Positions 8,990 through 64,000 of a stretch of DNA of 64,000 nt are shown one piece after another. The notes under the pieces were generated by a model. That model did no database searches and was not told the origin of the DNA. It worked only from the letters and a program-made list of their open reading frames with translations. The first letter of the stretch is position 1. Every line of letters begins with the position of its first letter. Both the position numbers and the translations under genes were made by a program. The stretch lies in the NCBI GenBank assembly GCA_964036195.1, contig OZ038450.1:26848794-26912793 (forward strand), in the 5' to 3' direction. The DNA comes from Sphaerolaimus hirsutus (lineage: Eukaryota; Nematoda; Chromadorea; Monhysterida; Sphaerolaimidae).

Positions 8990-9350
8990 AAGGACGTAGC
9001 CAGGGGGGGGGGGCGGGGGGGCGGCCGCCCCCCCCCCTTCCCGGGCCGGACCAAAAAATGTGCCAGAAATGGCACTTTCAGACGACGATTTTGTCGACAG
9101 TTTGAAAAATTTTTGCGCGCAAGAGCGCATTCTCCCTTCACAACATATCTTTTTGGCTGACCAGTCTCTGCGGCCTAAAAGCCAGTGAAAATGGACTCAT
9201 TTCTGTCCATGTCGCTGTATATGCCTGTAAAATACAGACATATACTGCTGTTTTGGCGCCAATGCCAACGCCAGTGGCGCGGCTGGGTGTAGTTACCATC
9301 CCAATGGAAACAGACGCCAACACACGCGCACTCAGTACCGGGAACGTTTT
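8990..9350. repeat. GGACGTAGCCAGGGGGG repeat end and GGCGCCAA cluster
   Basis: GGACGTAGCCAGG plus G/C runs lie at 8993-9045. Two palindromes, GCGCGCAAGAGCGC (9115) and GGCGCCAATGCCAACGCC (9244), follow. All of this is intronic to the headcase-like gene. Confidence 0.45.
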
Positions 9351-10850: not shown

Positions 10851-11049
10851 ATGATAGTTATCATTAAAATACTCTTCGAACGTGTTCAACAAACGGTCCT
10901 AATCCCCAATGAAAAGGTTTGAAAACCGATCGAAAAATACATATTCGGCGGCTCCACTCGCTTTGATGCTTTAAAATGCTTAAAAACAGCACCAAACAGA
11001 AAACGCAAAACTAAATGAGCCAACGCTGCATGTTTGTAAGAAACGTTGA

Positions 11050-11229
11050 CAAGTTCTTCTTCCAGTCGCTCGAAGCACTCAGCGTGAACGTAGGGCACCC
11101 CTGGACATTTTTGCGAGTCGCATGTCATTTTGACGGCGCCCTCGGGAAGTTTTGTGGCCCCCGCGGGTATGGGGGTGCCTGAAGGAAGTTTGAGTTGTTT
11201 ATTGCCGGAGGGGGGGGCCGAAAATTGCA
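11050..11229 (-). CDS. Headcase-like gene, exon B
   Basis: The minus-strand frame has a Pro/Gly/Ser-rich lead, then C-x4-C-x6-H-x2-C-F followed by an acidic ERLEEEL segment. This is the layout of the headcase/HECA N-terminal domain (CNNExC..x..MHxxCFxxWE in the family); the family Trp is Leu here. The start at 11229 follows CTCAAAG, which keeps phase with exon A (phase 1) but is a non-preferred AAG acceptor. The 3' limit is uncertain: the frame stays open to about 10886, and no strong donor was found near 11050. A hAT terminus (TAGGGTTCAAACG, about 11249) sits only about 20 bases upstream of this exon. Confidence 0.45.
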
Positions 11230-11248
11230 CTTTGAGAAGCATTAGATT

Positions 11249-11290
11249 AGGGTTCAAACGACGCATAAACATTGTTTTTGGAGATATGTT
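11249..11290. mobile_element. Solo TAGGGTTCAAACG terminus
   Basis: The terminus TAGGGTTCAAACGACGC has no matching right end nearby. It is a remnant of the element class described at 1111-2737. Confidence 0.5.
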
Positions 11291-11586
11291 GCACGAAAAC
11301 AGAAAATGTTGGATACGCATTCGAATATTTTTTTGTTGCGCGGAAATAATATCTTAATGCTTGATATCTGATAATTTGTGGACTATCCAAACAGCTTTTT
11401 GCGTGTAAAACTATATGTGAATAAACAGTAAACCAAATGGCCCTCGTTCTGGGAAACTTGGCACAGTTCCAAAAACTCAACGCACAACACAAACATCAAA
11501 TCAGCTTCTCAAAAAGCAAGAATACTATCTGAAGTTTTAAAATTTATCATCCGATTAGCATCGGTCAATCAAAAACTCAAAATTAC

Positions 11587-16662: not shown

Positions 16663-17337
16663 TAGGGACGGCTGAAAAAGGTGTTTTTTTCAACGACAGG
16701 GCGATTTTAAACTGTTTTTTCCAAATACGGTTTTATTTAAAAAAAACATTTTTTTCAAAAGCTCCCAGATATGGTCATGAGTGAACATATACAGGTAAAT
16801 CAGGTGACTGTACTTTGTGATGTTATATATAGCCATAGAATGGCTGTAGAGTAATGGGATAGCATTATAAGTGGTGATTTCTGTCAAAAGTATCTGTTTT
16901 ATGTCGACTTTTTTGTATATCGCCTTTTGTCAAACATTCATGATTTTAAGTGAAGTTGGGCATGGAAAAGTGCTCAAATAAGGTTAAAAGAGTAGGCTCA
17001 TACATTGTCAGTGGTGTTTCACACTGTACAAGTATGTGGGGGCACATTGGCTGTATATTTTTATACTACACTAGCATATCTTGGCTTATTACATAATAGC
17101 GCAAACAAATGGAAGCTTTTACACTAAAATTGCCTCAAAATCAATGAAAACCACCACAAATGGTAAAGTGCGGGTGAAATTGCACGATTTCATGCAAAGA
17201 AATTGCAAAATACCTAGTCCTTAGTTCTAAAAATTTAGTCCAAGCTTTAAAAAAAGTTTTGATGGTCGGGTTTTTTTTAAATAAAACGTTTTTTTATATT
17301 TTAAAATACCTTTAGTAAAAAACTCAGGCCATCCCTA
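16663..17337. mobile_element. TAGGGATGGCC hAT-type element, unit 1 copy
   Basis: It runs from TAGGGACGGCTGAAAAAGG to CTCAGGCCATCCCTA. The right flank GTTGTCCC and left flank AATGTCCC agree at 6 of 8 positions; the copy at 50822-51498 has the perfect TSD. The body resembles the TAGGGTTGG family (CAGATATGGTCATGAGTG, CACACTGTACAAGTATGTGG). It sits in the upstream region of the secreted-peptide gene in all three units. Confidence 0.8.
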
Positions 17338-17650
17338 GTTGTCCCAGTGAACAAAGATACACATGCTGCATGTTTTTATTGCACCCTTGACAGTTTTCCC
17401 TTTGTGCTTTCATTCAAACTGAAAAGTAATGAGTAGTCAAATGGATAACATTTGAAAAAGATGCATTGTCTTTTAAGGGTACCATTATTATTTTTACAGC
17501 TTCTCTCATTCACACTATGGTTTGTGTACCATTTCAGCTGATGCTACAATAACAGTTTGCACCAGCTGGGGCTCTTCACACTTTCCCTGCTTGAGAGATT
17601 TTCAAACTACAGATTTTGGGTGCTTATATCAAGGTATCATCATTCTTGTT
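17338..17650 (+). other. Candidate cysteine-bearing exon, conserved between units
   Basis: A short segment (about 17537-17630) reads CTSWGSSHFPC....C in one frame. It follows TTTTTACAG and CATTTCAG and ends at TATCAAG|GTATCA, a plausible donor. It is repeated at about 27435-27550 and 51695-51790. I could not find a consistent start exon: the third copy has TTTGAG in place of the acceptor. Function unknown, possibly non-coding upstream DNA of the divergent peptide gene. Confidence 0.25.
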
Positions 17651-18001
17651 GTAAACTTGCTGCTCACCAGTCTTTGTTTGATGGCGGTTTTCTGCTGCTC
17701 AAGGCAGCATTTAACGACGCCAGCCATCATAAGAGGTATTGGCAGATGGCCAAAACCGTGTTTTCTTGAATAAGGTTGATTTCGGCCGGTTTTAGAGCCT
17801 TCGGTCTTGGTTTTCTTCGTTTTTCACTTCAACGGTTTTTGATCCCAAGTCAACGGTTGGTGTGCTTTAGATGGCAGCAGGCACTCTCGTCACTGCAGAA
17901 CATCATGTGTTTTCTTTAACCGTGAGTAGGGCATTTGGGCCACCTAAAAAGGCAAATAACTCGATACATTAACCCCCCATAAAAATGAGTAAAATCAAGT
18001 C
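17651..18001. repeat. Inverted-repeat arm paired with 20100-20470
   Basis: CTGCTCACCAGTCTTTG...GATGGCGGTTTTCTGCTGC recurs reverse-complemented at 20100-20470 and 45545-45910, and directly at 41185-41545. Unit 1 is therefore itself a diverged inverted duplication around its centre. Confidence 0.75.
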
Positions 18002-27253: not shown

Positions 27254-27553
27254 GTTGTCCCAGTGAACAAAGATACACATGCTGCATGTTTTTATTGCAC
27301 CCTTGACAGTTTTCCCTTTGTGCTTTCATTCAAACTGAAAAGTAATGAGTAGTCAAATGGATAACATTTTAAAAAGATGCATTGTCTTTTAAGGGTACCA
27401 TTATTATTTTTACAGCTTCTCTCATTCACACTATGGTTTGTGTACCATTTCAGCTGATGCTACAATAACAGTTTGCACCAGCTGGGGCTCTTCACACTTT
27501 CCCTGCTTGAGAGATTTTCAAACTACAGATTTTGGGTGCTTATATCAAGGTAT

Positions 27554-29031
27554 TGTAGGTGGAAATATGGCTAGCCAGTCATGCGTAAAAACGTAATGAC
27601 CATCTTGTGCAGACACTCCGACGACTCGAGAACAACCATGTGTGACCGAATGACGGCCCGCGGTGCACAGGGAAATCACAGTGAACGCGAGGTTCGCTGT
27701 GCACTGCAAATCCGCCAACGAGGCCGCAGCCCCAGGACGGTACGCCCAAATGGACACTACTGCAGCCATGAAATTTATTAAGTATTTCTCTTTCCGTTAA
27801 TTACGTAACTATTCCCGTGTGATTTTGATTGTTTCATTTCCTGTTTCATTTAATTAAGCTAATTAAGTTACCCGCATTTTAAGTTAATTAAGTGATTACT
27901 CTCGTTTTTCTTTTGGACATGTAATTTCGAATTTTAATTTTTAAGGTTTCTATTAAGTTTACATAGTTGATCAAAAGGGTGCAGTGTCTGGGAATGGGTT
28001 AGAAAAGCTTTGAAGTTTCTTGTTAAGCTAAAGGTGTCGACTCTGTTAAACACCTTGGCGCCCCAATAGATAACATTCAGAAATTTCCCCGACCAAGTGT
28101 GTTTTTAGTTAGGACTAGGTAATGGGTGGAAAAGTGGCAAAACGGCAATTATTGTCGACATGCGACTGCAAGACACACGCAGAGCACAGTCTAAAGTGAA
28201 GAGCACAGCAGTGCCGACTAATTATTCCCATCACCCAGGGTGATTGGTGAACTCACAAGTGCTAGTGTCTTTGTAGCGCGTGTACATGCCCGAAGTTCCA
28301 ACCCTTACCCGGCAATGCAATAACCTTGAGTAAACCCCCGCAAATGAGCGTTTGTTCTGTGGCCTTGGTCGGGCGCGCTATAAAATATTTCACCTAAAGG
28401 GGCGCAGGGTGATAACACGTGTCACACCACCTGTTCTAAATTGTACCGTAACCTCTGAGTAAAAACCCAGTTTATGACACTCACCTCTGAGATAATTTGT
28501 ATTTTAATTATGTCAGATTAATCACCGTTACCTTATTTTTGGTTTAATTCCCGTTTGCATTTTTATCATTTTCCCGCATTCATTTAATTTTCCCGTGCCT
28601 TGTACACTATATTATTTGTTTTCCAGTGAGCATTGTTTTTGCTTTGTAATCTTCTAATTACGGTTAATTGTTGTGTCTCAGATTTAGTATTCATTAATGT
28701 TATGGTAGACTTTTTGTGATTATAAAACGCGCTGATTTTACGTTTTTTCACCCACTAGAGGCTTTACGACTCACTTGTGCTATTGTGAAAGTGACTCTGA
28801 CTATATTGCTAAATAAAGTTCCCGTGAATCCAACTTGGTCCCCCTGAAGCATACTAACTGCTTGTATTTTAATTTGATTTTTATTAATTACGGCTTTATT
28901 TTATTTACGGCTTATTAACAGTTAATCGAAGTAAACCGCCGGCTGCTGTTACGAAAGGGATTGGTAAGTTGCCGTGTCCGTCCTCGGGAACTTGTCAGGA
29001 CCCCAAGGGGTACTGGCGCTGTTCCTGATTT
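27554..29031 (+). repeat. 5' LTR, 3' end deleted
   Basis: It matches 39532-41008 and then stops. The last roughly 170 bases of the LTR (41009-41176 in the 3' copy) are missing and the sequence jumps straight into ORF1. TATAAAA is at 28721-28727 and AATAAA at 28812-28817, which places a short R region between about 28750 and 28835. Confidence 0.9.
28721..28727 (+). promoter_or_regulatory. TATA box of the 5' LTR
   Basis: TATAAAA in the LTR, about 90 bases before AATAAA. The 3' LTR equivalent is at 40694-40700 (AATAAA at 40785-40790). Confidence 0.6.
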
Positions 29032-30351
29032 GTGGTGGCGCCATTTGAAAAGGCAGTGATTCGAAGCGTCAGACAAAAAAGAGCGCAAGGTCGACCCACG
29101 TTAGGGATAGTGAGCGCAGGACAATTGGCAGCCAGCATGCAGGCGGTATATGAAACAGCAGAACAAACCATGCGTGCACAGGCAGTGGCCACTTGCAAGA
29201 ACGTGCAGCACTTCCAAGAATTTGTGCGCCTGGCTATGAATGAACATGCGACTACGACAGCCCGTTGGTACATGAACGATAATGAAATAATTGCTAAACC
29301 CGCGCCAGATGGATTTTTGGTTCACAAATGTTTTGCGGTCAAGACATACGAGATAATGAAAGAGGAAAAGTCCCCAGAATGTTATGAAACAGTACCTGTA
29401 CAAGTACGTGTGCATGGGCAGAATGTGACGTTGCACATGAACAGGCTGACGAACATTTTGCACTTTCAAGCGATCCCAGGATCATGCACCAATGCGCACA
29501 ACCGTGTGGTAATGTTAAATGGACAATGGTACAGATACCTGCCGAAGGTGGGCGGCTTGGAACATTTACCCATGTATAACACACACAGCTTCCCGCAGAA
29601 ATGGCAACAGGAAAAGGTTAAGGATGTACACCATCAGATTTTTGCCGCCACGACCATGTACAATTTGTCAGAACTATTGCCGACGACCACCTTGAATGAC
29701 GTGTGGCATGCATATTCAATTGTGCGGCAAATTACGCAGGGGGCGGAGCCGAAGGTGGAATCACACATGCAACGGCATCGAACTTTGGCAAAGTCGGTAT
29801 TGGCGCTAGGATGGTGGGATTTTGACACATGGCGCACCTGGTTACAAGTATGGATTTACCTGATATGTACTCTGGTTACCATGCAATACTTACTAGCCGC
29901 GCTCATGGCTGCAGCGCCGGAAACGGCTGTGACTTTGGTGAATCGAGCAAAGGAAAAAATCAAGAAACGACCAAAGAAAGAAGAAAAGCTGAACATGATT
30001 GTCGAACTGGCTGAGGATCGTCCTAGCGAACAGATGAAGGTACAAACGGTAATTAACCCGTGCGTGGGAATGCCAAGTGGCATGCCCGCACTCACGGGCG
30101 CGCGTCGTTTTCCCGCTATTCAATACAGTATAAACAGAAAATGTGATCTGGAGGAAGAATCGGTGTGCATGATTACATTCTCACCGGAAGAGAGGGATAA
30201 TATACGTCAAGTGGCCAATCGACGTGAAGAAATTGTGCATGTGTACTACAGCCCATCCATTACCATAATCATCGATGGGAGAGAATATCAAAGGTGCCTA
30301 CTGGACACAGGCGCCATGCATTCATTGTGTAACAGAGATGTGTTGATGTGA
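29032..30351 (+). CDS. Membrane-spanning protein fused to aspartic protease (5'-truncated ORF1)
   Basis: The frame opens exactly at the LTR deletion junction (29032, first codon GTG), with a stop two codons upstream, so the true N-terminus is lost; the first ATG comes about 35 codons in. The N-terminal two thirds has spaced cysteines, N-glycosylation-type sites and a P-x-W-Y-like segment (LNGQWYRYLPK). A roughly 25-residue hydrophobic stretch (WLQVWIYLICTLVTMQYLLA, about residues 273-298) and a very basic segment follow. The last 30 residues hold the protease active site LLDTGA (DTGA at 30304-30315). A TGA (30349-30351) cuts the protease; the flap and GADVL part continue in frame to a TAA at 30570. 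An ectodomain-TM-tail layout suggests an envelope-like or membrane-anchoring protein, but no family could be assigned. Confidence 0.6.
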   Translation: MVAPFEKAVIRSVRQKRAQGRPTLGIVSAGQLAASMQAVYETAEQTMRAQAVATCKNVQHFQEFVRLAMNEHATTTARWYMNDNEIIAKPAPDGFLVHKCFAVKTYEIMKEEKSPECYETVPVQVRVHGQNVTLHMNRLTNILHFQAIPGSCTNAHNRVVMLNGQWYRYLPKVGGLEHLPMYNTHSFPQKWQQEKVKDVHHQIFAATTMYNLSELLPTTTLNDVWHAYSIVRQITQGAEPKVESHMQRHRTLAKSVLALGWWDFDTWRTWLQVWIYLICTLVTMQYLLAALMAAAPETAVTLVNRAKEKIKKRPKKEEKLNMIVELAEDRPSEQMKVQTVINPCVGMPSGMPALTGARRFPAIQYSINRKCDLEEESVCMITFSPEERDNIRQVANRREEIVHVYYSPSITIIIDGREYQRCLLDTGAMHSLCNRDVLM

Positions 30352-30572
30352 CACAAAGAAAAGGCTACCAAGCACGATGAGGTATCACCCATTGGAGCCC
30401 TCAGATGTGCAGCCGACTCGAAACTTTTGGTATTGGGACAGATGGAAATACCTGTAACGATGGGGAACCACACCTTTGGGATTGTGTTTCAGGCAGTGAA
30501 TGGATTAGCTGGTGAAATTCAAATTGGCGCCGATGTATTGCGGCATATGGTAGTGGATTTACCGGCAATTTA
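30352..30572 (+). pseudogene. Protease C-terminal half after in-frame TGA
   Basis: Same frame as ORF1. It encodes the expected second half of a retropepsin (a GAEIQIGADVL-type segment near the end) and terminates at TAA 30570-30572. The next ORF continues in the same frame from 30586. Confidence 0.55.
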
Positions 30573-30585
30573 ACTACGAATCCCC

Positions 30586-31482
30586 ATGGCTCACGCGATA
30601 ATTCCATTTGATAACCCAGACCCAGAAGTTCAGCAGCGCAGAATTTACGCCATTGTGAACGAAAAAATAGAAATTCTGGCTAGACATGAAGCGCTAGTGA
30701 CAGCAAAATTATCTGCCCCTTTGGACGAAACTTTATTCACTGTTGTGGGATTGGATACGGTAGGCGAACGCTGTGGAGTTATGGCTGCTTCAGCGGCCTA
30801 TGAAACCAGTGCCCCCGTGTTTCAGGTGAGATGTGCAAATGTGCGAAATCAACCTGTGGTGTTACAGGTAGGACAGCGCATTGCTGTGGTCGAGCCAGTG
30901 GACTGCCTACTGAAGGTGAAGCCTGGAGACCCCCCTGTAGAATGGGTGAAGCAATGTTATGACAGAGATGTGTGTCAGCAAGTTCAAGCGACCAAACCTC
31001 CCCCCAAAGTAGCTGAAGACAAACTGGGGCCCCCACTGCAAGTTGTGTGCCCAGATGGACACATAATGGAATTTACAGTACCAGAAACTTTGACGGACGA
31101 ACGACGGGAGGAACTGAAAAAGGTGATTTTGCAATATAAAGAAGCTTTTGCACGACATAAGTATGACATTGGCTACAGCGAATTAGTAGACTATCGGCTG
31201 CAATTAGTGGATAAAAAACCAATTGCCTGTAGAATGTACCGATTGAGTCTGGATGATCAGCAATACTTAGAAAATCATTCGAGATGCCTCATTGAGCACG
31301 ACATCGTGGAACCCAGTACGAGCCCGTACTGTGCTCCCACGCTAGTGGTATCCAAGCCGGATGGGTCAAAGCGGATGGTAATTGATTACAGACGCCTGAA
31401 CGCTGTTTTGCACGCTCCCCAATTTCCATTACCCCGCTTAGATGAAACAGTCGAATCTTTATGTAGCTGCAAGTATTTTTAG
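30586..31482 (+). pseudogene. Reverse transcriptase, N-terminal part
   Basis: A linker region is followed by the RT fingers: TVEPST-like strand (VEPSTSPYCAPTLVVSKPDG), KRMVIDYRRLN and FPLPRLDE, as in Ty3/Gypsy RT. The frame ends at a TAG (31480-31482) caused by one extra T in a T-run; the homologous ADINQAFYNIAL stretch continues in the +1 frame. Confidence 0.85.
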
Positions 31483-31486
31483 CAGT

Positions 31487-31828
31487 GCCGACATAAATCA
31501 AGCTTTCTATAACATTGCTTTGCATCCAGATGATCGACACATTACGTCATTTAGAAATGTTTTTGGGCAATTTCAACTGAAACGTTTACCAATGGGATTA
31601 AAATGCTCCCCCAGTTTAGCGCAACGTTGTTTCAAATTAGCTATGGCCGGATTAATACATTGAAATGTGTTATTATACATTGATGATTTATTAATTTACA
31701 GTGCAACATGGGAGACACATTTATACGACATAGGGCAAGTGTTGGAACGGCTAATAAAAAATAATGTCAAAATTAGCCCAAAAAAGTGTTTTTTCGCACG
31801 CGTCACAGCCATACGTTTTTTGTGATTT
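31487..31828 (+). pseudogene. Reverse transcriptase, palm (YIDD) part, frameshifted
   Basis: It continues the RT in the shifted frame: SSADINQAFYNIAL, LKRLPMGLKCSPSLAQ, then TGA (31661-31663), then LLYIDDLLIYS with the catalytic YIDD at 31676-31687. A second TGA lies at 31823-31825, just before the next ORF. The catalytic residues survive but the frame is broken three times. Confidence 0.85.
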
Positions 31829-34201
31829 ATGATTGGACGTGACGGCGTGTGCGTACCGGATGATAAACGGCACATAATTCAGGACTGGCCGGTACCCATT
31901 ACCGTAAACGAGGTTAAGGGTTTCCTAGGAGCTATAGGTTTTTTTAGACGCATGATTCACAGATGTGCAGAACTGGCCGTACCCCTGTCAAATCTCACGC
32001 GTACGGGACCGAGGGAAAATTACAACAGTGACACCCCAGTGGATCTGACATCGAAACCCAAGGCGTTGGAAGCTTTTCATAAGCTCAAGGAAGCATTGCT
32101 AGGAAGCCTGTGTTTGCAATTTCCCGATCCCAAGCGTATGTTTATAATTATTACAGATGCCTCTAAAATCACTGTTGCAGGCATGTTAGCGCAACGAGCA
32201 GAGGATGAAAAAATACTGCATGCTTGTGCCTTTTACAGCCGGAAGTTAGGTGCAACCCAAAGCAAGTGGCCAGCAATTTCACTGGAAGCGTGTGCGATTT
32301 ATGAAAGTATACGTAATTGGCATTGTTATCTGGCGGGACGACCCTTTGAAGTCTGGACCGACGCCAAGAGTATATCATGGGTAAAGAATCCCAATTTAGA
32401 GACCACCCCGCACGCCATGCTACATAAGTTTGCCTTAGCAATTACGCCATATCAAATCACGTTCAAGCATTTGAGGGGAAAAAGCAATGAATTGGCAGAT
32501 GCGTTATCTAGAAGACAGGACGCGCCAGTGGTATTCGATGAGAAAAAGGACCTGGATGAAGCCTTTGAGCAGTTTGCACAAGTTACGTGCCGTGAAATTG
32601 CTATTCCGCACGACAAACAGGTTACGGTAGCTGCGGCGAGCAGAGCAGCGTACCAGCCAATCAGCGAGCGAGGCAGCGTAAATGAGGAGGCGGAGTTACT
32701 GCGACCAATCAGCGACCGGACGCGCGGGCGAAAAGAGGCGGAGTCTCCTGGGTTGCGAGAATGGCAGCGGAATGCGGAAGCACCTGGAACTGGAACAATG
32801 GCTGGTGGTTCAGGAGCCGGAAATGAAGTTGCTCCGGGTTTAACGAGTGTAACCAAGCGCAGTACGATAATGGCGCTACCTCCCATGACCCCAGTTGATA
32901 AGTTGAAACAATTGCAAGCGGAGGAACCCTATATAGCCGCAACAATAGAAGTGTGTCGCGCAGATAATTTTTACAGTGCTGCACCATATTTTATTGATCA
33001 ATACGGTCTCCTACGTCGCCAGGCAGGAACGTCCCAGATCCCAGGTATACAGTTATATGACCCAGTGTGTATTCCGTCGGAATTAGTTCCATTCGTATTA
33101 GAATTAGCTCACAATCACCCCACGGCGGGCCATTTAGGAATAATAAAAACATTTGAAAGATTGCAGGAGTTCGCGTGGTTCCCAGGAATGCGGCCGGAAA
33201 GTGCGCACTGGGTGGCTACTCGCCCTTCGTGCAACGCCAAGAAAGGTCTCAGAGCGGCAATGCGAACTCAAATGGTGTGCCGCCAGGTAGCCAAAAGGCC
33301 AGGTGATGTGATAGCAGTAGACACAATAGGACCTTTATTAACCACGAAACGCAGAAACCGACATGTGTTAGTGTTTGTTGATCAGTGTACTCGTTTTGGA
33401 ATTGCTGTGCCCGTTCCCGACATAAAACAAGACACGGTATCATTTGCATTCTCATTGCACATTTTGCCCATATTTAGTGTGCCAGCTATTATACTCAGTG
33501 ATAACGCCCCTAGCTTTACCGAGGGCACTTTTGCCAAGCTTTTACAATATTTGAACGCGACCCAACATACATCTTTTGCGTACACCCCCAAGAGTAACGG
33601 AATGGTGGAACGTAGGAATGGTGTTCTGATGGAAATAGTGTCCCACTATGTAAATCGTACACATGACGATTGGGACATACATTTAGGAGCCGCTGTACAT
33701 GCGTACAATACATCGAAACACCCGTCTCTGCTAACCACCCCCTATGCGTTGCTATTTGGCAAGCCTGCTGCGTCTATGTGGGAGCGTATGATTGAGCCTC
33801 CCTCTGACACTGAGGCATTGCCATCATTGCCGCATAAGCACGCCCTTATAAATGAGTTAGGTGCGCGTTTGACTACAGCACGCGAAGCTGCGCACACCGC
33901 TTTAGCAAGGGCGCAGCAAAAGGAACAATTTTACGCCAATCGCCGTGCACGCCGATTAAATGTGCAACACGGGCAAGCGGTACGCGTGTACATGCCGCGT
34001 ATTACACAGTTGACGGGCCCTAGTAAGAAATTCGCGCCTCGTTTTATAGGCCCATATGAGTGTATTGATTATGCCCACCCATTAGTGACTTTATTCAATA
34101 ATATTAATAGGAAAATATATGTAGTTCATGCAGATCGCTGCAAGGCAACCAGTGAATATTTAATTCCCCCTTCTTACAGTGAATTATACAACGACGACTA
34201 A
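31829..34201 (+). CDS. RT connection, RNase H and integrase (790 codons)
   Basis: Residues 1-100 are the RT thumb/connection (VKGFLGAIGFFRRMI). RNase H covers about 105-240 (ITDASK, LEACAIYE, WTDAKS, LADALSR). An Ala/Gln/Arg-rich linker of about 110 residues follows. Integrase has an HNHPTAGHLG zinc region (about 427), then VDTIGP (D about 497), LSDNAPSF (D about 557) and NGMVERRNG (E about 592): a complete DDE triad. The zinc finger keeps only one of its two cysteines (RPSC where CPxC is usual; a TGC-to-CGC change would explain it). The C-terminal part has the GPYECID chromodomain-free tail typical of simple Gypsy integrases. The stop at 34201 is followed by a 224-base spacer. Confidence 0.9.
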   Translation: MIGRDGVCVPDDKRHIIQDWPVPITVNEVKGFLGAIGFFRRMIHRCAELAVPLSNLTRTGPRENYNSDTPVDLTSKPKALEAFHKLKEALLGSLCLQFPDPKRMFIIITDASKITVAGMLAQRAEDEKILHACAFYSRKLGATQSKWPAISLEACAIYESIRNWHCYLAGRPFEVWTDAKSISWVKNPNLETTPHAMLHKFALAITPYQITFKHLRGKSNELADALSRRQDAPVVFDEKKDLDEAFEQFAQVTCREIAIPHDKQVTVAAASRAAYQPISERGSVNEEAELLRPISDRTRGRKEAESPGLREWQRNAEAPGTGTMAGGSGAGNEVAPGLTSVTKRSTIMALPPMTPVDKLKQLQAEEPYIAATIEVCRADNFYSAAPYFIDQYGLLRRQAGTSQIPGIQLYDPVCIPSELVPFVLELAHNHPTAGHLGIIKTFERLQEFAWFPGMRPESAHWVATRPSCNAKKGLRAAMRTQMVCRQVAKRPGDVIAVDTIGPLLTTKRRNRHVLVFVDQCTRFGIAVPVPDIKQDTVSFAFSLHILPIFSVPAIILSDNAPSFTEGTFAKLLQYLNATQHTSFAYTPKSNGMVERRNGVLMEIVSHYVNRTHDDWDIHLGAAVHAYNTSKHPSLLTTPYALLFGKPAASMWERMIEPPSDTEALPSLPHKHALINELGARLTTAREAAHTALARAQQKEQFYANRRARRLNVQHGQAVRVYMPRITQLTGPSKKFAPRFIGPYECIDYAHPLVTLFNNINRKIYVVHADRCKATSEYLIPPSYSELYNDD

Positions 34202-34425
34202 AATTAATTAATTACACGTTAATTAGCTGTTACGACGGCCACCGTCACGCCGCGCCGCCCGGACCAAGGTATAAAAAGCGTGATGTGTGTGTGAGAGTGT
34301 GTGTGTTCGTAGGAAGCTCGTGCACCCCTTTTGCCCACGGGTAACTGGACCGCACGAGTTTTTATTACTTTCCCCGTTCATTAAAATTTCGCAATTAATT
34401 ATTTTATAACATTGACATAATTATA
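34202..34425 (+). promoter_or_regulatory. Intergenic spacer with internal TATA box
   Basis: GGTATAAAAAGCG (TATA at 34270-34277) is followed by a GT-rich stretch and TTCGTAGG, then an AT-rich leader to the helicase ATG at 34426. This arrangement would suit a separate transcript for the helicase ORF. A splice acceptor is an alternative explanation. Not proven. Confidence 0.4.
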
Positions 34426-36984
34426 ATGGCCTCGGCCTCTTGCAAACGCCCATTCGAAGGTGCAGACGTCCCGCCCATCAAATCCAAGGAAACAAATACG
34501 CATGGTGCCTGCGGCGGCGGAACCGTTCCCCCGCGACAACTTTACCGCGCGCTGCAGATGCAAAACGGACCGGAAATCTACCCCAGCAGAGGGAAATTCG
34601 AAGGTTGGGTAGACCAAGTGTACATTGATACGGGTACCGACGGGCATGTTGAGTATCAGTGCCATGTGAAAATTTCTGAGCAAACTATGGCAATACTCAG
34701 CGAAAATGAGCAATGGGTGAACGCGGATGAGGCATATCCGTACTTTTATTACTCGACAAAACGGGCGAAGGCGGCCAGAGACAAAAGGACCACCCAGTTG
34801 GTGGATCTGTGTTCAAGAATTCAGAAACAGCACCCCTCGATGTTTTTGCCCCTGGTGCGCCACGGAATGCGTTTTTCGGCGACCACGATTGCACAGAAAA
34901 TAGAAAACCCGCGGTACTGGGAGTTTACCGGTGTTGTGATATGGGGTAACCAGACCAAATGCCCCCTAAACATTGCCGCCCCGATTGTAGTGAGTACGCA
35001 GGGCACGCGGCGCATCACTCAGGCGGCGCGCACGTTGACACGTGGCGACACTTCCGGTTACCAGCCGTACACAAGCGACTGGAAAACAGCGCGGCTGCGA
35101 GCGGCCTTCATGCCTTCAAATTACAAGAACCTGGACCCGCTGGGCGCGGCGGAGCGAGGCGATGCCGGGCCGGAAAAGTTGGTCATTTTACACCACGAAT
35201 ATGTGAGTGACCCCAGAGTGGAAACTTTGAGTGCTGGGCAGTTGGGGCTGGCCCATGTCAAGTATCACGACCTGAACGACTTAGATGTGTTTGGTGACGA
35301 ATTTTACGGCCATGCATACGGGCTGCAGATCGCCATGGCCGAGGACATCAGCACAACGGGCGTTCAGCCGGACACAGAGAACCGAGACAACATGGACATA
35401 TTTTTGAGGTACAAAATGAGTATTTTAGCAGCGGCCCACTGCTACAACGAGTCATTTTTGCGGTTTCGGGCGAAACGCGCAACGGACGTGTGCGCAAATG
35501 TATTCTGGGAGCACACGCCGCAGGGCACTGCATGCGACATTATGGTGCGCCGCCCGGACCCAGAGGAATTACAAGCGGACACTTTTGAGGGACCAGAAGA
35601 GCAGCGCGTCTGTTTACTGGAGCAGGTGAATACACAGACACAGCTGCTGAACCAGGCGATGCCCATGTCAGTTGTGAGCTTGGTGCAGGCCCGACCTGAT
35701 GAAGACAAACCAGCTGCAGGCAGCCCCAATTTGTCAGTGAGAATTACCAGTGTGGAATCGGAGCCAGCCACTACAATGCTGCGTGCGAAATTGGACACGA
35801 CAGCGTCGCAGTCAGTGCTGCCCCGTACCCTGGAGGATGGACGGTACATGGTGCGCGGCTCCAACGACTCGCCCAATTATGACCGAACCATGTGGTCACT
35901 GCAGGCCGCCCTGAACAAGGCGCCGGTCGGCTGGGTGCCAAAAGTGGTTCAGGGGTCAAAAGTACTCACCCTGGAGGCGCAAATCCAATTAGCTGTGATA
36001 TTGAATTTGCGTCTGCTGGATGACGAAACTGACTGGGCGCTAATTAGCTGCGAGGCTAATGAGCAGTATGAATCATTGTTCAGGGGAAGAAATGAACAAA
36101 TGATTCAGGCCAAACTAGGTGAGTTTCTGCCACAACAAGGACAGGTAGAAGTTTTAGGAGCTGTGATCACAGCCGTGCGCATGCGCAAACCCCTTTTGAT
36201 TATGTGTGACTCGCCTTTCGGGTCTGGGAAGACGACCACACAAAATCAACTGGCGTATGTGTGTTCGCGCGGCTATAATTATTACAACGCGAGACCCAGG
36301 GTACGCGCGGGCTCTGACTTGCCGTCTGACAAGCAGCCGAACGCCAAATACCACTCAAGGCTCATCACGTGCACCGTCAACTCGGCGGCCAACAAAGGAG
36401 CGCGCAGAGCGCTGACCAACCTGAAAAAATTAGGGCAGCGGGACATTTTTGGGGCTTTGGAAGTTTTGTTGCGGGAACGCGCAAAATGGACCGCCATGGC
36501 TGATACGCCATTTTCTGAAATGCAAAAACTGGAGGGTTTTGAAGACTTTTTGAAATTGAGAGCGGCATTTCTGGTGCGCGTTTTGAGCCCCATGTGGGAA
36601 AGTGATGCCACTTATGGCACCACTCCCGCGACCCAATTACCAACCCTGCACACCCTAGCACAGCAAACCGGCCACAACATTGTCCGTCTCAGCCCCAAAT
36701 GGACAGCAGCGCTGGAAAAGTACGACGGCGCCAAAAAGGACTACGAGCTGGTGGATGAGATCATCAACAACTGCACGGATGATGCCGTTATCCGCGCGCA
36801 GCTGACCGAGCAAGTGCCCTTTCTCACCGCCGAGGATGGGGACGAACAGCCATTTGACGACTTCGAGGGAGGTGTGGCGGGCGCCCGGGCTGGAGAGGCT
36901 AGTTTAGCTGACCAGGGGTTCTGGGGTAAGGTGCTGCGTAGGGCGCTGTCTAAATATGTCAGGGCTACGGTCAGGCTGCACTGA
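34426..36984 (+). CDS. SF1 (UPF1-like) helicase, N-terminal region and motifs I/Ia
   Basis: The 852-codon ORF starts at an ATG in an AT-rich context. Residues 1-590 match no family I recognise: a basic start, a folded-looking middle, and a polar 440-500 stretch. The Walker A loop MCDSPFGSGKTT is at about residues 594-604. A motif Ia-like ITCTVNSAANKGA follows, in the position of the UPF1-type xxNxAxD segment. An acidic linker precedes the TGA at 36982-36984; the helicase continues in the same frame. ATP-dependent nucleic acid unwinding is inferred from the motif set. The ORF is visibly more GC-rich than the pol ORFs and flanks, which points to a different origin. It lies inside the LTRs and on the same strand as pol. 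Confidence 0.8.
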   Translation: MASASCKRPFEGADVPPIKSKETNTHGACGGGTVPPRQLYRALQMQNGPEIYPSRGKFEGWVDQVYIDTGTDGHVEYQCHVKISEQTMAILSENEQWVNADEAYPYFYYSTKRAKAARDKRTTQLVDLCSRIQKQHPSMFLPLVRHGMRFSATTIAQKIENPRYWEFTGVVIWGNQTKCPLNIAAPIVVSTQGTRRITQAARTLTRGDTSGYQPYTSDWKTARLRAAFMPSNYKNLDPLGAAERGDAGPEKLVILHHEYVSDPRVETLSAGQLGLAHVKYHDLNDLDVFGDEFYGHAYGLQIAMAEDISTTGVQPDTENRDNMDIFLRYKMSILAAAHCYNESFLRFRAKRATDVCANVFWEHTPQGTACDIMVRRPDPEELQADTFEGPEEQRVCLLEQVNTQTQLLNQAMPMSVVSLVQARPDEDKPAAGSPNLSVRITSVESEPATTMLRAKLDTTASQSVLPRTLEDGRYMVRGSNDSPNYDRTMWSLQAALNKAPVGWVPKVVQGSKVLTLEAQIQLAVILNLRLLDDETDWALISCEANEQYESLFRGRNEQMIQAKLGEFLPQQGQVEVLGAVITAVRMRKPLLIMCDSPFGSGKTTTQNQLAYVCSRGYNYYNARPRVRAGSDLPSDKQPNAKYHSRLITCTVNSAANKGARRALTNLKKLGQRDIFGALEVLLRERAKWTAMADTPFSEMQKLEGFEDFLKLRAAFLVRVLSPMWESDATYGTTPATQLPTLHTLAQQTGHNIVRLSPKWTAALEKYDGAKKDYELVDEIINNCTDDAVIRAQLTEQVPFLTAEDGDEQPFDDFEGGVAGARAGEASLADQGFWGKVLRRALSKYVRATVRLH

Positions 36985-37830
36985 GTGTTTTTGGAAGTGG
37001 TGCAGCCCGGTCAAATCCATGTCACTTTAGACTCCGCCCACGACACCCGTATAAAAAGTGTGACTGCGTGCGCGGTAATTATTGACAAAGCGTCATTGGC
37101 GTCTGACGCTGCAGTGATTAGTGTGGTTCAGGCGGCCCAGCTCCCAGTAAACGGCATGCTACTTCTATTTGGAGACAGTAAACAATTGACGCGTATGATT
37201 CGCGTGCAAGACTGGGTGGAGCCCGTCCTGAAACCCGAACCCACCCTCATTGATAGGCTCACACAGTACCAACTATGCCCTGTGGTTCACTTGGAAACAG
37301 TGTTCCGCGGGCATCGCCAGCTCATTCAGGCCAACTCTGTGGCAGCGTACCATGGATTGCTGCGCGCCTACAACGACAAGGCAGCGCACGGCGCCACCAT
37401 GTTGCCCGCGCCCGGCGACTCCGAGGACGGCGTCACGCTGTTGTCCACACTGGTGCACCAGGGCTGCGAGTCAAAAGAGGGCATGTCAATCATCAACAAG
37501 ACCAAACTGCGAATCATCCTGCACCTCTACGACTACTTCGTGGCCACTGTGAAAGAAGATCCCACCCTACCCTGGGCGGATTTAACGGACCCCGCTAGTT
37601 TACTAATTGTGTGTTTCTACGCGCCGCAGGCGCGCACCCTAATTAGTAGGTTAACAGCCCATACAGAACACGACGCGGCCTACTGGGCCACCCGTGTAAT
37701 CACTGCCGACAAAGCCCAGGCCCGTGAAGCGGAAGTGGTCATTGTTTCCTGCGTGCGCGGCAGCCCGCCAACCGACTCCGCCCAGCTGGATGCCGACCCC
37801 AGGAAGGCGTACGGTAGAGTTGGATTTGTG
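36985..37830 (+). pseudogene. SF1 helicase, motifs II-V (after TGA, before hAT insertion)
   Basis: It continues the helicase frame. Motif II appears as VIIDKAS (37078-37095), where the family has D-E-A-S/D; a single GAA-to-AAA change explains the Lys. Motif III is LLFGDSKQL (37165-37188). The HLETVFRGHRQL segment matches motif IV. Motif V/Va is ADKAQAREAEVVIVSCVRG, with Ala where the family has Gly after Gln. The frame then runs into the 37831-38382 transposon just before motif VI. Loss of the catalytic Glu suggests the protein was inactive or decaying. Confidence 0.8.
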
Positions 37831-38382
37831 TAGGGTGTCAAATTTCCATTTTCCGTTTTCCGTTTTCGTTTTCCGCAGGCAAATTTTTTCCGTTTTCCGT
37901 TCCGTTTTCCGGCCGGTGAAATTTTTTTTCCATTTTCCGTTCCGTTTTCCGGCCACCTTTTTTTCCGTTTCCGTTTTTCCGGCTCATTTTCCGTTTTCCA
38001 GTTAAATTTTCAGTTTTTCTGCCTTTTTTCCGTTTTCCGGCTCAATATCCAGTTTTTCCGCCTTTTTTCCGTTTTCCACCTCAATTTTCTGCTTTCCGCC
38101 TCATTTTACCCTTTTCTGGCTCAACTTTTGGCTTTCTGTTCCAGCCAAACTGGTAAACAGTCATGCAGATTGTCAATTATGTACAAAAAAAATTCTGTTT
38201 CCAGCAAAATTTCCGTGAATTTTATTGTTTTTTTGGCAAAATTTCAGCAAATTTTTCCATTTCCATGCGAATTCCATTTTTCCGTTTCCGTTTTTCCGAC
38301 CCCTTTTTCCGTTTTCCGGCCGCTGAAATTTTTTTTCCGTTTCCGTTTCCGTTTTCCGTAAAAAATTTTTTTTGACACCCTA
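37831..38382. mobile_element. TTCCG-array hAT-type element inserted in the helicase ORF
   Basis: It runs from TAGGGTGTCAAATTTCC to TTTTTTTGACACCCTA. The 8-bp TSD GATTTGTG is perfect (37823-37830 and 38383-38390). The interior is a TTTTCCGTTTCCG array (AAACGG on the other strand) with a CATGCAGATTGTCAATTATG core. It is the youngest visible event in the helicase ORF. Confidence 0.95.
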
Positions 38383-38957
38383 GATTTGTGGCAGAATTGC
38401 CCCGGGGAAACGTAGCTACCTCCCGCGCCAAATGTGTACGTGTGGTGGTAGCCAACACCGAGACCATGTTGTGGTCAACTTTCTTTCACCGGTTTCTGAC
38501 AGTCGAAAGCATGACTGAGAGAATTTACACTTACGAGTCGGGCCAGATCTGGGGAAACGTGCTGGGGTACTGGCCACATGAGTGGCGCCCGCGGGCCGAC
38601 TTGAAAGAACTAGTCGGACCTGAAAAATACCCGGCACTCGAAGAAGACCTGAAAGCGGAAATTCAGCCCGATATTGAAACCGCTACCTCAAGCTCTGACT
38701 CCTCCGCGGACGTGTGGGAGGAGGTCGTGCCGGTGGTAGAGGAGGTTGTGCCCGTAGTTGAGCCAGTTTACTGCCCTAATGAAGACTATTCCCCCATTAG
38801 CAACAACATGGCGGCCATGGCACTGCAGAACGTGGCCGAGCCCCCCTCGCCGCCGCCCGAGCACAACGACGCGGTCGATGCCATCCCGCTGCCACCGGAG
38901 GACGCTCCAGCGCAGCAGGTAGAACACCTCATGGAAAATGGTAATTGTGAAAATTGA
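38383..38957 (+). pseudogene. SF1 helicase, motif VI and C-terminal tail
   Basis: Right after the TSD comes a motif VI-like RGNVATSRAKCVRVVVAN (family: R.NVA.TRAK), which completes the helicase core. About 160 further residues follow: an aromatic segment, a Ser/Asp-rich acidic patch, a Val/Glu repeat (EEVVPVVEEVVPVVE) and a Pro-rich tail ending at the TGA near 38957. The tail has no recognised domain. Confidence 0.75.
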
Positions 38958-39531
38958 TAGGAGACAATTTTTTAATTAGAATAAAATATAAGGTTTCAAA
39001 GTGCGATATTTTATGCACAACTTTTTTGTCTTCAGGAGAAACAGACAACTTTGTAACAGAAAACGAATGGTCAAACATACATGTTAATATTCCATGAAAA
39101 TAATTAGAAAATCTTGTTGACGATCAATTTTCACACACACGAATTGCGACATGTCGGTCGAGCAGGTAACTTGAATGTTGATCCCAAATTGCCCGTCCAG
39201 CAGTGGCACAATGCTGCGAAGTGACCCAATTAGAGTTCTATTTAATTAGTCTTTGTAAAATAAAAAATAAAACTTTTTCTCACATCGAGCCCTGTGCGGG
39301 AACCAAAATTTCGAAGTTTCGGGCACAAAAAGCTGGCACAGCAGAAAGCTGATGCCATAGTTCGAATGAAGACAAGCCATATTTGCACCCCCAGGGCATG
39401 TGACTGCCACGGCCATCCACCGAAAAATGCAGAGAAGTCATGATTTTTGAATAACCGAAAAACGGTGCAAAACACTTTTTCTGAACATGTCGTTTTTAGC
39501 CCAGAGGTAAAAAATTAATGGCTGGTGGGAT
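38958..39531 (+). other. 3' untranslated region of the LTR element
   Basis: AT-rich, with no ORF of note. The bases before the 3' LTR (AGAGGTAAAAAATTAATGGC) contain only a weak purine run, so the polypurine tract is poor or decayed. Confidence 0.5.
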
Positions 39532-41176
39532 TGTAGGTGGAAATATGGCTAGCCAGTCATGCGTAAAAATGTAATGACCATCTTGTGCAGACACTCCGAC
39601 GACTCGAGAACGACCATGTGTGACCGAATGACGGCCCGCGGTGCACAGGGAAATCACAGTGAACGCGAGGTTCGCTGTGCACTGCAAATCCGCCAACAAG
39701 GCCGCAGCCCCAGGACGGTACGCCCGAATGGACACTACTGCGGCCATGAAATTTATTAAGTATTTCTCTTTCCATTAATTACGTAACTATTCCCTTGTGA
39801 TTTTAATTGTTTCATTTCCTGTTTCATTTAATTAAGCTAATTAAGTTACCCGCATTTTAAGTTAATTAAGTGATTACTCTCGTTTTTCTTTTGGACATGT
39901 AATTTCGAATTTTAATTTTTAAGGTTTCTATTAAGTTTACATAGTTGATCAAAAGGGTGCAGTGTCTGGGAATTGGTTGGAAAAGCTTTGAAGTTTCTTG
40001 TTAAGCTAAAGGTGTCGACTCTGTTAAACACCTTGGCGCCCCGATAGATAACATTCAGAAATTTCCCCGACCAAGTGCGTTTTTAGTTAGGACTAGGTAA
40101 TGGGTGGAAAAGTGGCAAAACGGCAATTATTGTCGACATGCGACTGCAAGACACACGCAGAGCACAGTCTAAAGTGAAGAGCACAGCAGTGCCGACTAAT
40201 TATTCCCATCACCCAGGGTGATTGGTGAACTCACAAGTGCTAGTGTCTTTGTAGCGCGTGTACATGCCCGAAGTTCCAACCCTTACCCGGCAATGCAATA
40301 ACCTTGAGTAAACCCCCGCAAATGAGCGTTCTTTCTGTGGCCTTGGTCGGGCGCGCTATAAAATATTTCACCTAAAGGGGCGCAGGGTGATAACACGTGT
40401 CACACCACCTGTTCTAAATTGTACCGTAACCTCTGAGTAAAAACCCAGTTTATGACACTCACCTCTGAGATAATTTGTATTTTAATTACGTCAGATTAAT
40501 CACCGTTACCTTATTTTTGGTTTAATTCCCGTTTGCATTTTTATCATTTTCCCGCATTCATTTAATTTACCCGTGCCTTGTATGCTATATTATTTGTTTT
40601 CCAGTGAGCATTGTTTTTGCTTTGTAATCTTCTAATTACAGTTAATTGTTGTGTCTCAGATTTAGTATTCATTAATGTTAGACTTTTTGTGATTATAAAA
40701 CGCACTGATTTTACGTTTTTTCACCCACTAGAGGCTTTACGACTCACTTGTGCTATTGTGAAATTGACTCTGACTATATTGCTAAATAAAGTTCCCGTGA
40801 ATCCAACTTGATCCCCCTGAAGCATACTAACTGCTTGTATTTTAATTTGATTTTTATTAATTACGGCTTTATTTTATTTACGGCTTATTAACAGTTAATC
40901 GAAGTAAACCGCCAGCTGCAGTTACGAAAGGGATTGGTAAGTTGCCGTGTCCGTCCTCAGGAACTTGTCAGGACCCCAAGGGGTACTGGCGCTGTTCCTG
41001 ATTTGCGTGTAAAATCCCTGTACCATAAAAACAAACATTTGTTTAATTACGCACGCAATTAAAAGCGCAAAGGGACCGGAATTTACAATTCTCTGCCGCG
41101 GTAACTCGACGAGTGGCGTATTTGTGTGGTAAAAACGGAAACTAGTAAAATTAGTAAAAATGTAAAATATCTGACA
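39532..41176 (+). repeat. 3' LTR, full length (1645 bp)
   Basis: It begins TGTAGGTGG and ends CTGACA before the TSD GTAT. TATAAAA is at 40694-40700 and AATAAA at 40785-40790. It contains about 170 terminal bases that are absent from the 5' LTR. Confidence 0.92.
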
Positions 41177-41955
41177 GTATCATCATTCTTGTTGTAAACT
41201 TGCTGCTCACCAGTCTTTGTTTGATGGCGGTTTTCTGCCGCTCAAGGCAGCATTTAACGACGCCAGCCATCATAAGAGGTATTGGCAGATGGCCAAAACC
41301 GTGTTTTCTTGAATAAGGTTGATTTCAGCCGGTTTTAGAGCCTTCGGTCTTGGTTTTCTTCGTTTTTCACTTCAACGGTTTTTGATCCCAAGTAAACGGT
41401 TGGTGTGCTTTAGATGGCAGCAGGCACTCTCGTAACTGAAGAACATCCATGTGTTTTCTTTAACCGTGAGTAGGGCATTTGGGCCACCTAAAAAGGCAAA
41501 TAACTCGATACATTAACCCCCCATAAAAATGAGTAAAATCAAGTCCAATTTTTTTTGAACGAACCTGGATTAAGGCCCCTTACTCACTGCATTTGTGTGA
41601 CGACAGTAGATCTTACTCGTCACAGACCGTTTTGTGATGACAAATCTATTTTTTAGCAGATTTTCAGAGTGTGATGACTGGTCGGCCTCGTTATTGGCGA
41701 CAAGTAGCGACCCTTTTTTAACCATGCTCATTGTGACGACTAGATCAAATATTTTACTTGTCGTCACACTCGCGCAATGCGACGACCAATTTTTTTAAAT
41801 TGTCGGCGCACCTGTCGGGCTCCAAGCATAGCTGGAATGAGGGTGGCATTTTAGGGGTGGGGGGTCTCCAAAGAGTGGCGCCTTCCCATGCTGGTGTACG
41901 TCAGCCGATTTTGATGTTGTTTGAGTATGTTGGTGTTTGGGGTCGGGGCTACGAC

Positions 41956-42571
41956 TAGGGTGTCAAAAAAATTTTTTACGGAAACGGAAACGGAAAAAAA
42001 ATTTCAGCGGCCAGAAAACGGAACGGAAAACGGAATAAAATTTGCACTTGGCAGAAAACAGAAACGGAAATGGAAAAAAATATCAGTGGCCGGAAAACGG
42101 AAAAAGGGGTCGGAAAAACGGAAACGGAAAAATGGAATTCGCATGGAAATGGAAAAATTTGCTGAAATTTTGCCAAAAAAAACAATAAAATTCACGGAAA
42201 TTTTGCTGGAAACAGAATTTTTTTGTACATAATTGACAATCTGCATGACTGTTTACCAGTTTGGCTGGAACAGAAAGCCAAAAGTTGAGCCAGAAAAGGG
42301 TAAAATGAGGCGGAAAGCAGAAAATTGAGGTGGAAAATGGAAAAAAGGCGGAAAAACTGGATATTGAGCCGGAAAACGGAAAAAAGGCGGAAAAACTGAA
42401 AATTTAACTGGAAAACGGAAAATGAGCCGGAAAAACGGAAACGGAAAAAAAGGTGGCCGGAAAACAGAATGGAAAATGGAAAAAAAATTTCACCGGCTGG
42501 AAAACGGAACGGAAAACGGAAAAAATTTGCCTGCGGAAAACGGAAACGGAAAACGGAAATTTGACACCCTA
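41956..42571. mobile_element. AAACGG-array hAT-type element with perfect TSD
   Basis: It runs from TAGGGTGTCAAAAAAATTT to GGAAATTTGACACCCTA. The TSD GCTACGAC is perfect (41948-41955 and 42572-42579). It is the inverted counterpart of 37831-38382, with arrays of GGAAAACGGAAACGG. It is absent from unit 1 (near 19550). Confidence 0.94.
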
Positions 42572-63983: not shown

Positions 63984-64000
63984 TAAATTTTGAAAATCGG

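What the first reader, a model, noticed from the sequence alone, without database searches (positions are those of the whole stretch)
34426..38957. LTR retroelement with its own superfamily 1 (UPF1-like) helicase
Seen: inside one TSD-bounded LTR element, on the pol strand and downstream of integrase, lies an ORF with SF1 helicase motifs in order: GSGKTT (I), a VNSAANKGA motif Ia, DKAS (II), GDSKQL (III), FRGHRQ (IV), an AQAREAEVV motif V and RGNVATSRAK (VI). Known: LTR retroelements usually carry gag, pol and sometimes env; I know of no Ty3/Gypsy group with an SF1 helicase. Inference: the element captured a cellular or viral helicase. Higher GC than pol and the roughly 590-residue unknown N-terminus fit a separate origin. 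This is the strongest candidate for an undescribed system.
Basis: partly seen in the sequence, partly recalled or inferred. Interest (0 to 1): 0.92.

Follow-up and report, generated by a model that had tools for sequence, protein, structure and literature searches.

The report
Giant retrovirus-like element carrying a helicase
A genome that is probably an animal's holds well over a hundred copies of a large retrovirus-like jumping element that carries its own helicase-type gene, kept intact by selection, which may help it handle an unusually long RNA genome; the copy seen here is a broken one.

Summary
The window holds a dead copy (27554-41176, GTAT duplication, empty-site paralogue at 17634) of an LTR element whose third gene, after integrase, is a UPF1-like superfamily 1 helicase. 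Here that gene is broken by a stop (36982) and a 552-bp insertion (37831-38382), and motif II is altered.

It is not a one-off. The genome (348 Mb) gave 138 scored helicase matches of 455 candidates, 93 of 138 in open frames of 1300 codons or more. Chosen by integrase instead, 106 of 107 scored copies have helicase sequence downstream. Sampled copies are young (1-7 LTR mismatches per ~1675 bases, 8 of 8) and the helicase is under purifying selection (dN/dS about 0.09).

Less damaged copies are about 17.5 kb: gag, a glycoprotein-like region in frame before protease, pol with a conserved +1 shift, then a ~1322-codon helicase. Planarian Burro shares the in-frame glycoprotein; the section I read mentions no helicase. 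Source, close relatives and the ~590-residue N-terminus are unknown. The mechanism (unwinding the element's own long RNA or RNA-DNA hybrids) is inferred. New variant of a known kind.

The parts
27550..27553 (.). left target-site duplication GTAT
   Evidence: same 4 bases at 41177-41180; paralogous empty site at 17634-17637
27554..29032 (+). 5' LTR, starts TGTAGG, truncated: lacks the last ~171 bases present in the 3' LTR
   Evidence: 97.9% identical to the 3' LTR over 1484 columns, 26 mismatches
29033..30348 (+). remainder of ORF1: second half of fusion-glycoprotein-like region, membrane anchor, start of protease
   Evidence: Pfam PF24664 E=1.4e-6 here, 8.4e-8 for the whole region in L034; RVP 0.029, below cut-off
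30586..31479 (+). ORF1 end: protease remainder and N-terminal part of reverse transcriptase, ends ..SCKYF at TAG
   Evidence: no Pfam match of its own; read from the translation and the corresponding part of L034
31483..34198 (+). ORF2 region: reverse transcriptase palm (interrupted here before 31826), RNase H, integrase
   Evidence: 31829-34201: RT_RNaseH_2 4.2e-26, RT_RNaseH 2e-23, Integrase_H2C2 1.9e-11, rve 3.5e-9
34202..34425 (+). inter-ORF leader with an AG/GAAG stretch at 34311 that looks like a splice acceptor in relatives (inference)
   Evidence: TTTT-AG before it in 9 of 10 relatives, TTCGTAG here, absent from L022
34426..36981 (+). helicase ORF3, first part: ~590 residues of unknown ancestry, then motif I GSGKTT and motif Ia
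   Evidence: no family match above cut-off
36982..36984 (+). in-frame stop that breaks ORF3 in this copy
36985..37830 (+). helicase ORF3, second part: motifs II-V, AAA_12 domain
   Evidence: PF13087 E=3.5e-17; 138 scored matches in own genome
37831..38382 (.). secondary insertion, terminal inverted repeats TAGGGTGTCAAA, TTTTCCG-rich inside, 8-bp duplication GATTTGTG on both sides (37823-37830, 38383-38390); not part of the element
   Evidence: absent from 10 of 10 fetched relatives
38391..38954 (+). helicase ORF3, last part: motif VI RGNVATSRAK and acidic, proline-rich tail
38958..39531 (+). 3' untranslated part ending in purine-rich GGCTGGTGGGAT before the LTR
39532..41176 (+). 3' LTR, TGTAGG..TGACA
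41177..41180 (.). right target-site duplication GTAT

Best explanation
The helicase is the regular third gene (about 1322 codons) of a ~17.5-kb, recently active, glycoprotein-bearing Ty3/Gypsy-type element, not a chance insertion. The window copy is an older, dead member. In less damaged copies the order is LTR - gag with zinc knuckle - glycoprotein-like region - protease - RT (+1 shift) - RNase H - integrase // helicase - LTR. I infer that ORF3 is made from its own (probably spliced) message as a separate UPF1/SEN1/IGHMBP2-like superfamily 1 enzyme with a private N-terminal domain, and that it unwinds or strips the element's own long RNA or RNA-DNA hybrids during the copying cycle (for packaging, reverse transcription, or escape from host RNA surveillance). 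Shown: structure, copy number, constancy, youth, purifying selection, helicase motifs. Inferred: activity, message, substrate and step. Probabilities: integral and selected gene 0.95; catalytically active RNA/RNP helicase 0.8; main role in handling its own long RNA during reverse transcription or packaging 0.4.
For: Copies: 138 scored matches of 455 candidates, 92-100% identical, 93 of 138 in open frames of at least 1300 codons. Constancy: of 107 scored integrase matches (1811 candidates), 99 have a listed helicase 3.87-3.95 kb downstream, 3 have one at 4.6, 5.0 and 8.0 kb, and 4 of the 5 left over show it when fetched. Structure: 10 of 10 downstream pieces run helicase - UTR - 3' LTR without break, 9 of 10 with integrase just upstream. 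Youth: LTR pairs differ at 1-7 of 1672-1686 bases, plus one gap in 1 of 8, in 8 of 8 copies; 4-bp duplications in 7 of 8, 5-bp in 1 of 8. Selection: window lineage against copies, dN/dS 0.092, 0.086 and 0.094 in the three main helicase parts, 0.171 in the tail, 0.024-0.060 in pol and ORF1 parts; among copies, helicase dN 0.0015-0.0065 against dS 0.07-0.14. Enzyme: AAA_12 88 bits; IGHMBP2-family model E=3.6e-14, though far below that model's cut-off; nearest solved chain 8ftm (named 5'-3' RNA helicase-like protein) E=1.5e-5, then UPF1 0.015; all seven motifs in 10 of 10, motif II in two forms.
Against: No expression, splicing or biochemical data. The N-terminal ~590 residues match nothing; AAA_11, the first RecA half, stays below its cut-off (19.8 and 13.4 bits against 27). 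Motif II is altered in the window and in 1 of 10 relatives with an otherwise open frame. The ten helicase stretches and eight front stretches were taken from matches with long open frames, so dN/dS and LTR ages are of well-kept copies. With the 8-row profile A1 the match to 8ftm is weaker (E=0.0013) and UPF1 is not significant (1.4). 1 of 107 integrase copies (C38) lacks helicase sequence at the expected place; the next listed one lies 16.5 kb on. L022 has no integrase and no matching first ~36 codons upstream. AlphaFold models of ORF3 and the glycoprotein-like region failed (mean pLDDT 27 and 31), so no fold supports either assignment. No relative species could be searched.
Confidence: 0.65

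Rival explanations
1. The helicase is a weapon against host surveillance rather than a copying enzyme: a UPF1-like decoy that protects the long multi-ORF RNA from nonsense-mediated decay, or a suppressor of RNA silencing as proposed for the insect LINE helicases.
For: UPF1-family match; the RNA would have stops far from its 3' end (inference); the need of retroviruses to avoid decay is discussed for Cer1 (PMC10309623, passages); viral SF1 helicases of insect LINEs showed a weak ability to suppress silencing in a plant system (PMC6338049, part 1 of 4 of the text).
Against: Motifs for catalysis are kept in the sampled copies (9 of 10 with the usual motif II), which a mere decoy would not need; identity to an exon of the host's UPF1-like gene is only 28% over 96 positions.
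Confidence: 0.3
2. One-off insertion of a helicase gene or fragment into a single LTR copy.
For: The window copy does hold one secondary insertion, 37831-38382.
Against: 138 scored copies with the helicase; 106 of 107 scored integrase matches have it downstream; no boundaries of its own in 9 of 10 fetched copies.
Confidence: 0.01
3. Neutral passenger: a transduced host gene carried along without function.
For: LTR elements can capture ORFs after pol (PMC6431247, passages).
Against: dN/dS near 0.09 between lineages at dS 0.3-0.5, and dN 0.0015-0.0065 at dS about 0.1 among young copies; intronless frame of about 1322 codons; 28% identity to the host UPF1-like exon.
Confidence: 0.03

Closest known systems
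Burro giant Ty3/Gypsy elements of planarians (PMC6431247: section 7 read in full, and passages)
   Same: large Ty3/Gypsy-type element; long ORF1 with gag and zinc knuckles and a mononegavirus-like fusion glycoprotein in frame between gag and protease, described there as the first such case
   Different: Burro exceeds 30 kb and carries MATH, BIR, BCL2, ankyrin and dUTPase-like parts, none found at E<=1 in ORF1 of L034; that section mentions no helicase; here ~17.5 kb, a +1 shift inside RT and a separate helicase ORF. Sequence relationship not tested
Insect LINEs (TRAS, Jockey) and Ty1/Copia fusions with viral SF1 helicase (PMC5563155 passages; PMC6338049 part 1 of 4; PMC4686597 passages)
   Same: superfamily 1 helicase carried by retroelements, kept over long times
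   Different: those are virga/tobamovirus-like helicases fused to LINE proteins or to Copia RNase H or integrase; here Viral_helicase1 is below cut-off (13.5 against 21), UPF1-type AAA_12 fits instead, and it is a free ORF3 of a glycoprotein-bearing Ty3/Gypsy element
Bdelloid rotifer LTR elements with extra ORF3 enzymes (PMC5408684, abstract and passages)
   Same: an enzyme ORF in the place after integrase
   Different: GDSL esterase or DEDDy exonuclease; the word helicase occurs there only in a reference title
Anakin, BEL-Pao elements with chuvirus glycoprotein (PMC7642597, passages)
   Same: mononegavirus-type glycoprotein in an LTR element
   Different: BEL-Pao, not Ty3/Gypsy; the word helicase does not occur in the text; the exact place of its glycoprotein was not in the passages seen
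UPF1 / SEN1 / IGHMBP2 helicases
   Same: AAA_12 domain, motif order (motif labels recalled)
   Different: 26-28% identity in the comparisons made, no recognisable N-terminal domain

Membership tests
Ty3/Gypsy LTR retroelement | protease - RT - RNase H - integrase order | tested here: met
   protease models match below their cut-offs (16.0, 15.7 and 14.5 bits)
Ty3/Gypsy LTR retroelement | LTRs TG..CA with short target duplication | tested here: met
   4 bp in the window and 7 of 8 copies, 5 bp in 1 of 8
Ty3/Gypsy LTR retroelement | gag of the Retrotrans_gag type with zinc knuckle | tested here: met
   PF03732 27.6 bits against 24.1; zf-CCHC 17.3 against 20.8, below cut-off, but CX2CX4HX4C is readable
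Ty3/Gypsy LTR retroelement | RT tree placement | not tested
   no tree built; 39 protein hits, 23-32% identical
UPF1-like SF1 helicase | AAA_12 domain above curated cut-off | tested here: met
   63.1 bits window, 88 bits in two relatives, cut-off 27
UPF1-like SF1 helicase | motifs I-VI in order | tested here: met
   10 of 10 copies, motif II DEAS in 9 of 10 and DKAS in 1 of 10
UPF1-like SF1 helicase | AAA_11 domain above cut-off | tested here: not met
   19.8 and 13.4 bits against 27; so called UPF1-like, not a UPF1 orthologue
UPF1-like SF1 helicase | 5'-3' ATP-driven unwinding | not testable with these tools
   needs protein
Burro | glycoprotein in frame between gag and protease | tested here: met
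   (L034); ORF1 open through this region in 5 of 8 copies
Burro | BIR, MATH, BCL2, dUTPase-like domains, internal region up to 25 kb | tested here: not met
   no such Pfam match at E<=1 over ORF1 of L034; ~17.5 kb in all
Burro | sequence homology to Burro | not tested
   no Burro sequence held
Viral helicases captured by insect retroelements | Viral_helicase1-type (virga/tobamovirus) domain | tested here: not met
   13.5 bits against 21 in L028, not listed for L021

The most novel reading that the evidence does not exclude
A distinct retrovirus-like lineage in which a gag-glycoprotein-protease-pol polyprotein is paired with a self-made UPF1-type helicase, so that a reverse-transcribing genome of about 16 kb of RNA is handled in the way nidoviruses handle theirs: the helicase is what permits the large size, an independent parallel in reverse-transcribing elements.
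Probability: 0.3. Interest if true: 0.9.

Novelty: new variant of a known kind. Interest (0 to 1): 0.78.

Why it matters
No retrovirus or Ty3/Gypsy group with its own conserved helicase gene appeared in the listings of the literature searches made (open-licence PubMed Central papers only, and only the top rows are listed). In nidoviruses, the RNA viruses with the largest genomes, a zinc-binding superfamily 1 helicase is an invariant part of the copying machinery (PMC6211748, passages). A young, multi-copy retroelement with a selected UPF1-like helicase lets one ask whether long genomes copied by reverse transcription need one too, and what such an enzyme does for a parasite whose RNA should be a target of host decay. 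The in-frame glycoprotein adds a case of an arrangement that the one review read describes only for planarian Burro.

Tried and rejected
Protein searches: the 852-residue window piece gave no hit at E<=10 among 7994 candidates scored; residues 580-1200 of the L028 helicase gave two weak hits among 7993, a trypanosome UPF1-like protein E=0.27 and an unnamed protein E=0.87. These searches need shared 5-residue words, so distant kin can be missed. IMG/VR scans with helicase, pol and glycoprotein queries found no relative. AlphaFold models were useless, so no fold search was run. A 3C-protease-like match of helicase residues 294-382 (E about 1; 0.26 for the window piece) was set aside as chance. 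One-off insertion and neutral passenger were rejected on counts and dN/dS. Whether other glycoprotein-bearing families exist in this genome stayed open: that search did not complete. Rfam and tRNA scans of the window were empty. The model name SEN1 for 8ftm could not be confirmed in the library.
Full report
What was checked. The window carries a 13.6-kb LTR insertion, 27554-41176, flanked by GTAT on both sides. A paralogous repeat at 16890-18001 continues straight through the site, so it shows the locus without the element. The LTRs in the window are 97.9% identical over the part they share. The gene is broken in this copy: a stop at 36982, an inserted inverted-repeat element at 37831-38382 with an 8-bp duplication, and a lysine in motif II. 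The 5' LTR is cut short and about 4.4 kb of the element's front is missing.

Other copies. The genome search found 138 scored matches to the helicase piece out of 455 candidates, all 92-100% identical; 93 of 138 lie in open frames of at least 1300 codons. A Pfam AAA_12 search scored 150 of 454 candidates: two exons of a host UPF1-like gene (177.7 and 146.6 bits; the label UPF1 is mine) and 148 others at 89.7-97.8 bits, the range of this helicase. Only best candidates are scored, so these are lower bounds.

Is the helicase constant? I fetched ten stretches around helicase matches with long frames and eight stretches from the front of other copies with long frames. In 10 of 10 the helicase frame (1327-1338 codons, stop to stop) runs unbroken to the same 3' untranslated part and 3' LTR; in 9 of 10 the integrase end lies just upstream. 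In L022 integrase and the first ~36 codons were not found. To avoid choosing by helicase I searched with integrase: 107 scored matches of 1811 candidates. Against 162 helicase places typed, 99 of 107 have a helicase 3.87-3.95 kb downstream and 3 more at 4.6, 5.0 and 8.0 kb. Of the other 5, 4 show helicase sequence after integrase when fetched; one (C38) does not, and its next listed helicase is 16.5 kb on. So 106 of 107.

Anatomy of less damaged copies. All eight front stretches hold a ~1675-base LTR followed by AC-TGGTAGC, a plausible primer-binding start. ORF1 is open for 2217-2228 codons in 5 of 8 and broken in 3 of 8. In L034 it carries, in order: about 560 residues rich in Ala, Ser and Gln; Retrotrans_gag at 594-673 (27.6 bits, cut-off 24.1); a zinc-knuckle motif at 818-834; a methionine at 1136 with a signal-peptide-like segment 1143-1161; a cysteine-rich region with sequons; an anchor-like segment at 1689-1707; protease; and the first part of RT. 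The glycoprotein-like region matches Monjiviricetes_fusion at E=8.4e-8, 31.1 bits, cut-off 27, over 192-450 of 605 residues; the match is real but modest and no fold model supports it. RT continues in ORF2 in the +1 frame after TTT TAG C in 8 of 8 copies, and the window has the same letters. ORF3 is the helicase. One copy measured by coordinates (L031 and L039) spans 17.56 kb.

Age and selection. LTR pairs of eight copies differ at 1-7 of 1672-1686 bases, with one gap in 1 of 8. Between the window lineage and the sampled copies, dN/dS is 0.086-0.094 in the three main helicase parts, 0.171 in its tail and 0.024-0.060 in pol and ORF1 parts. Among copies, mean synonymous distances (0.05-0.23) far exceed replacement ones (0-0.014) in every part tested, including the glycoprotein-like region (dN/dS 0.03-0.05) and the first 321 codons of ORF1, which hold no methionine. 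Copies that are young by their LTRs thus differ from one another mainly at silent sites, so several lineages stayed active with all genes under constraint (inference).

What the helicase is. From its MASAS start ORF3 is 1320-1323 residues in 9 of 10 copies; L022 lacks that start (that call counts to the end of the frame). Its C-terminal core matches AAA_12 (88 bits) and the IGHMBP2-family model (E=3.6e-14, far below that model's cut-off). Nearest solved chains are 8ftm, 8fth and 8ftk, named 5'-3' RNA helicase-like protein (I recall these as a fungal SEN1; a paper search did not confirm it), E=1.5e-5, then UPF1, 0.015; with the 8-row profile the values are 0.0013 and 1.4. Identity to the host UPF1-like exon is 28% over 96 positions, while that exon is 37-41% identical to the two weak database hits, so the element's gene is not a recent copy of host UPF1. 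The N-terminal ~590 residues match nothing.

How it probably works. Shown: a selected, catalytically plausible SF1 gene that belongs to the element. Inferred: a separate message, because ORF3 starts about 225 bases after integrase behind a T-run and AG kept in 9 of 10 copies; and a role on the element's own RNA, because that RNA would be about 16 kb and UPF1/SEN1-type enzymes act on RNA and RNA-DNA hybrids (recalled). The main rival is protection from decay or silencing.

Comparison. The listings of the paper searches led to helicases of viral type in insect LINEs and two Copia fusions, enzyme ORF3s in rotifer elements, and planarian Burro with a glycoprotein in frame between gag and protease, but to no Ty3/Gypsy element with a UPF1-type helicase gene. 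The paper that first described Burro (Grohme et al. 2018) was not held under the number I tried, so a helicase there cannot be excluded.

Verdict. Real, integral, selected, and unusual; origin and role open. New variant of a known kind.

Noticed in passing
L034 5723-7537 (ORF1 residues 1136-1740) and the same part of L035, L036, L038; window 29033-30348 holds its second half: A fusion-glycoprotein-like region with its own signal-like segment and anchor sits in frame between the gag zinc knuckle and protease; dN/dS 0.03-0.05 among 8 copies.
   Followed up: partly
window 31470-31482; L031-L038 near 8990-9010: RT is split by TTT TAG C at which the frame changes by +1, same in 8 of 8 copies and in the window: probably programmed frameshifting inside the RT domain.
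   Followed up: partly
L034 2318-3280: First 321 codons of ORF1 hold no ATG yet show dN/dS 0.125 among 8 copies, so translation may begin at a non-AUG codon or after splicing.
   Followed up: no
window 37831-38382 and 42054-42559: TTTTCCG-rich element with TAGGGTGTCAAA inverted ends and 8-bp duplication (hAT-like, recalled); an inverted stretch 97% identical over 508 columns lies at 42054-42559.
   Followed up: partly
window 61318-63998 (-): Pol of another Ty3/Gypsy-type element, 26% identical to this one in two stretches, reaching the window end.
   Followed up: no
window 10889-11353 (-): Weak match to Headcase N-terminal domain, E=1.9e-5, 25.2 bits just below the cut-off of 27; fits an animal host.
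   Followed up: no
G000:C65:86011-86712 and C14:4125120-4125530 (L047, L048): Two nearly identical UPF1-like exons, either a duplicated gene or uncollapsed haplotypes.
   Followed up: no
G000:C274:22152-24639: Two helicase matches 1.6 kb apart in the same orientation, a rearranged or tandem copy.
   Followed up: no
L022: A copy with an open helicase frame and 3' LTR but no integrase match or usual ORF3 start upstream.
   Followed up: no
window 360-2740 and 4700-5470: Arrays of GATATCGATATTCGATA-type and GGTCCCGGTCCC-type short repeats.
   Followed up: no
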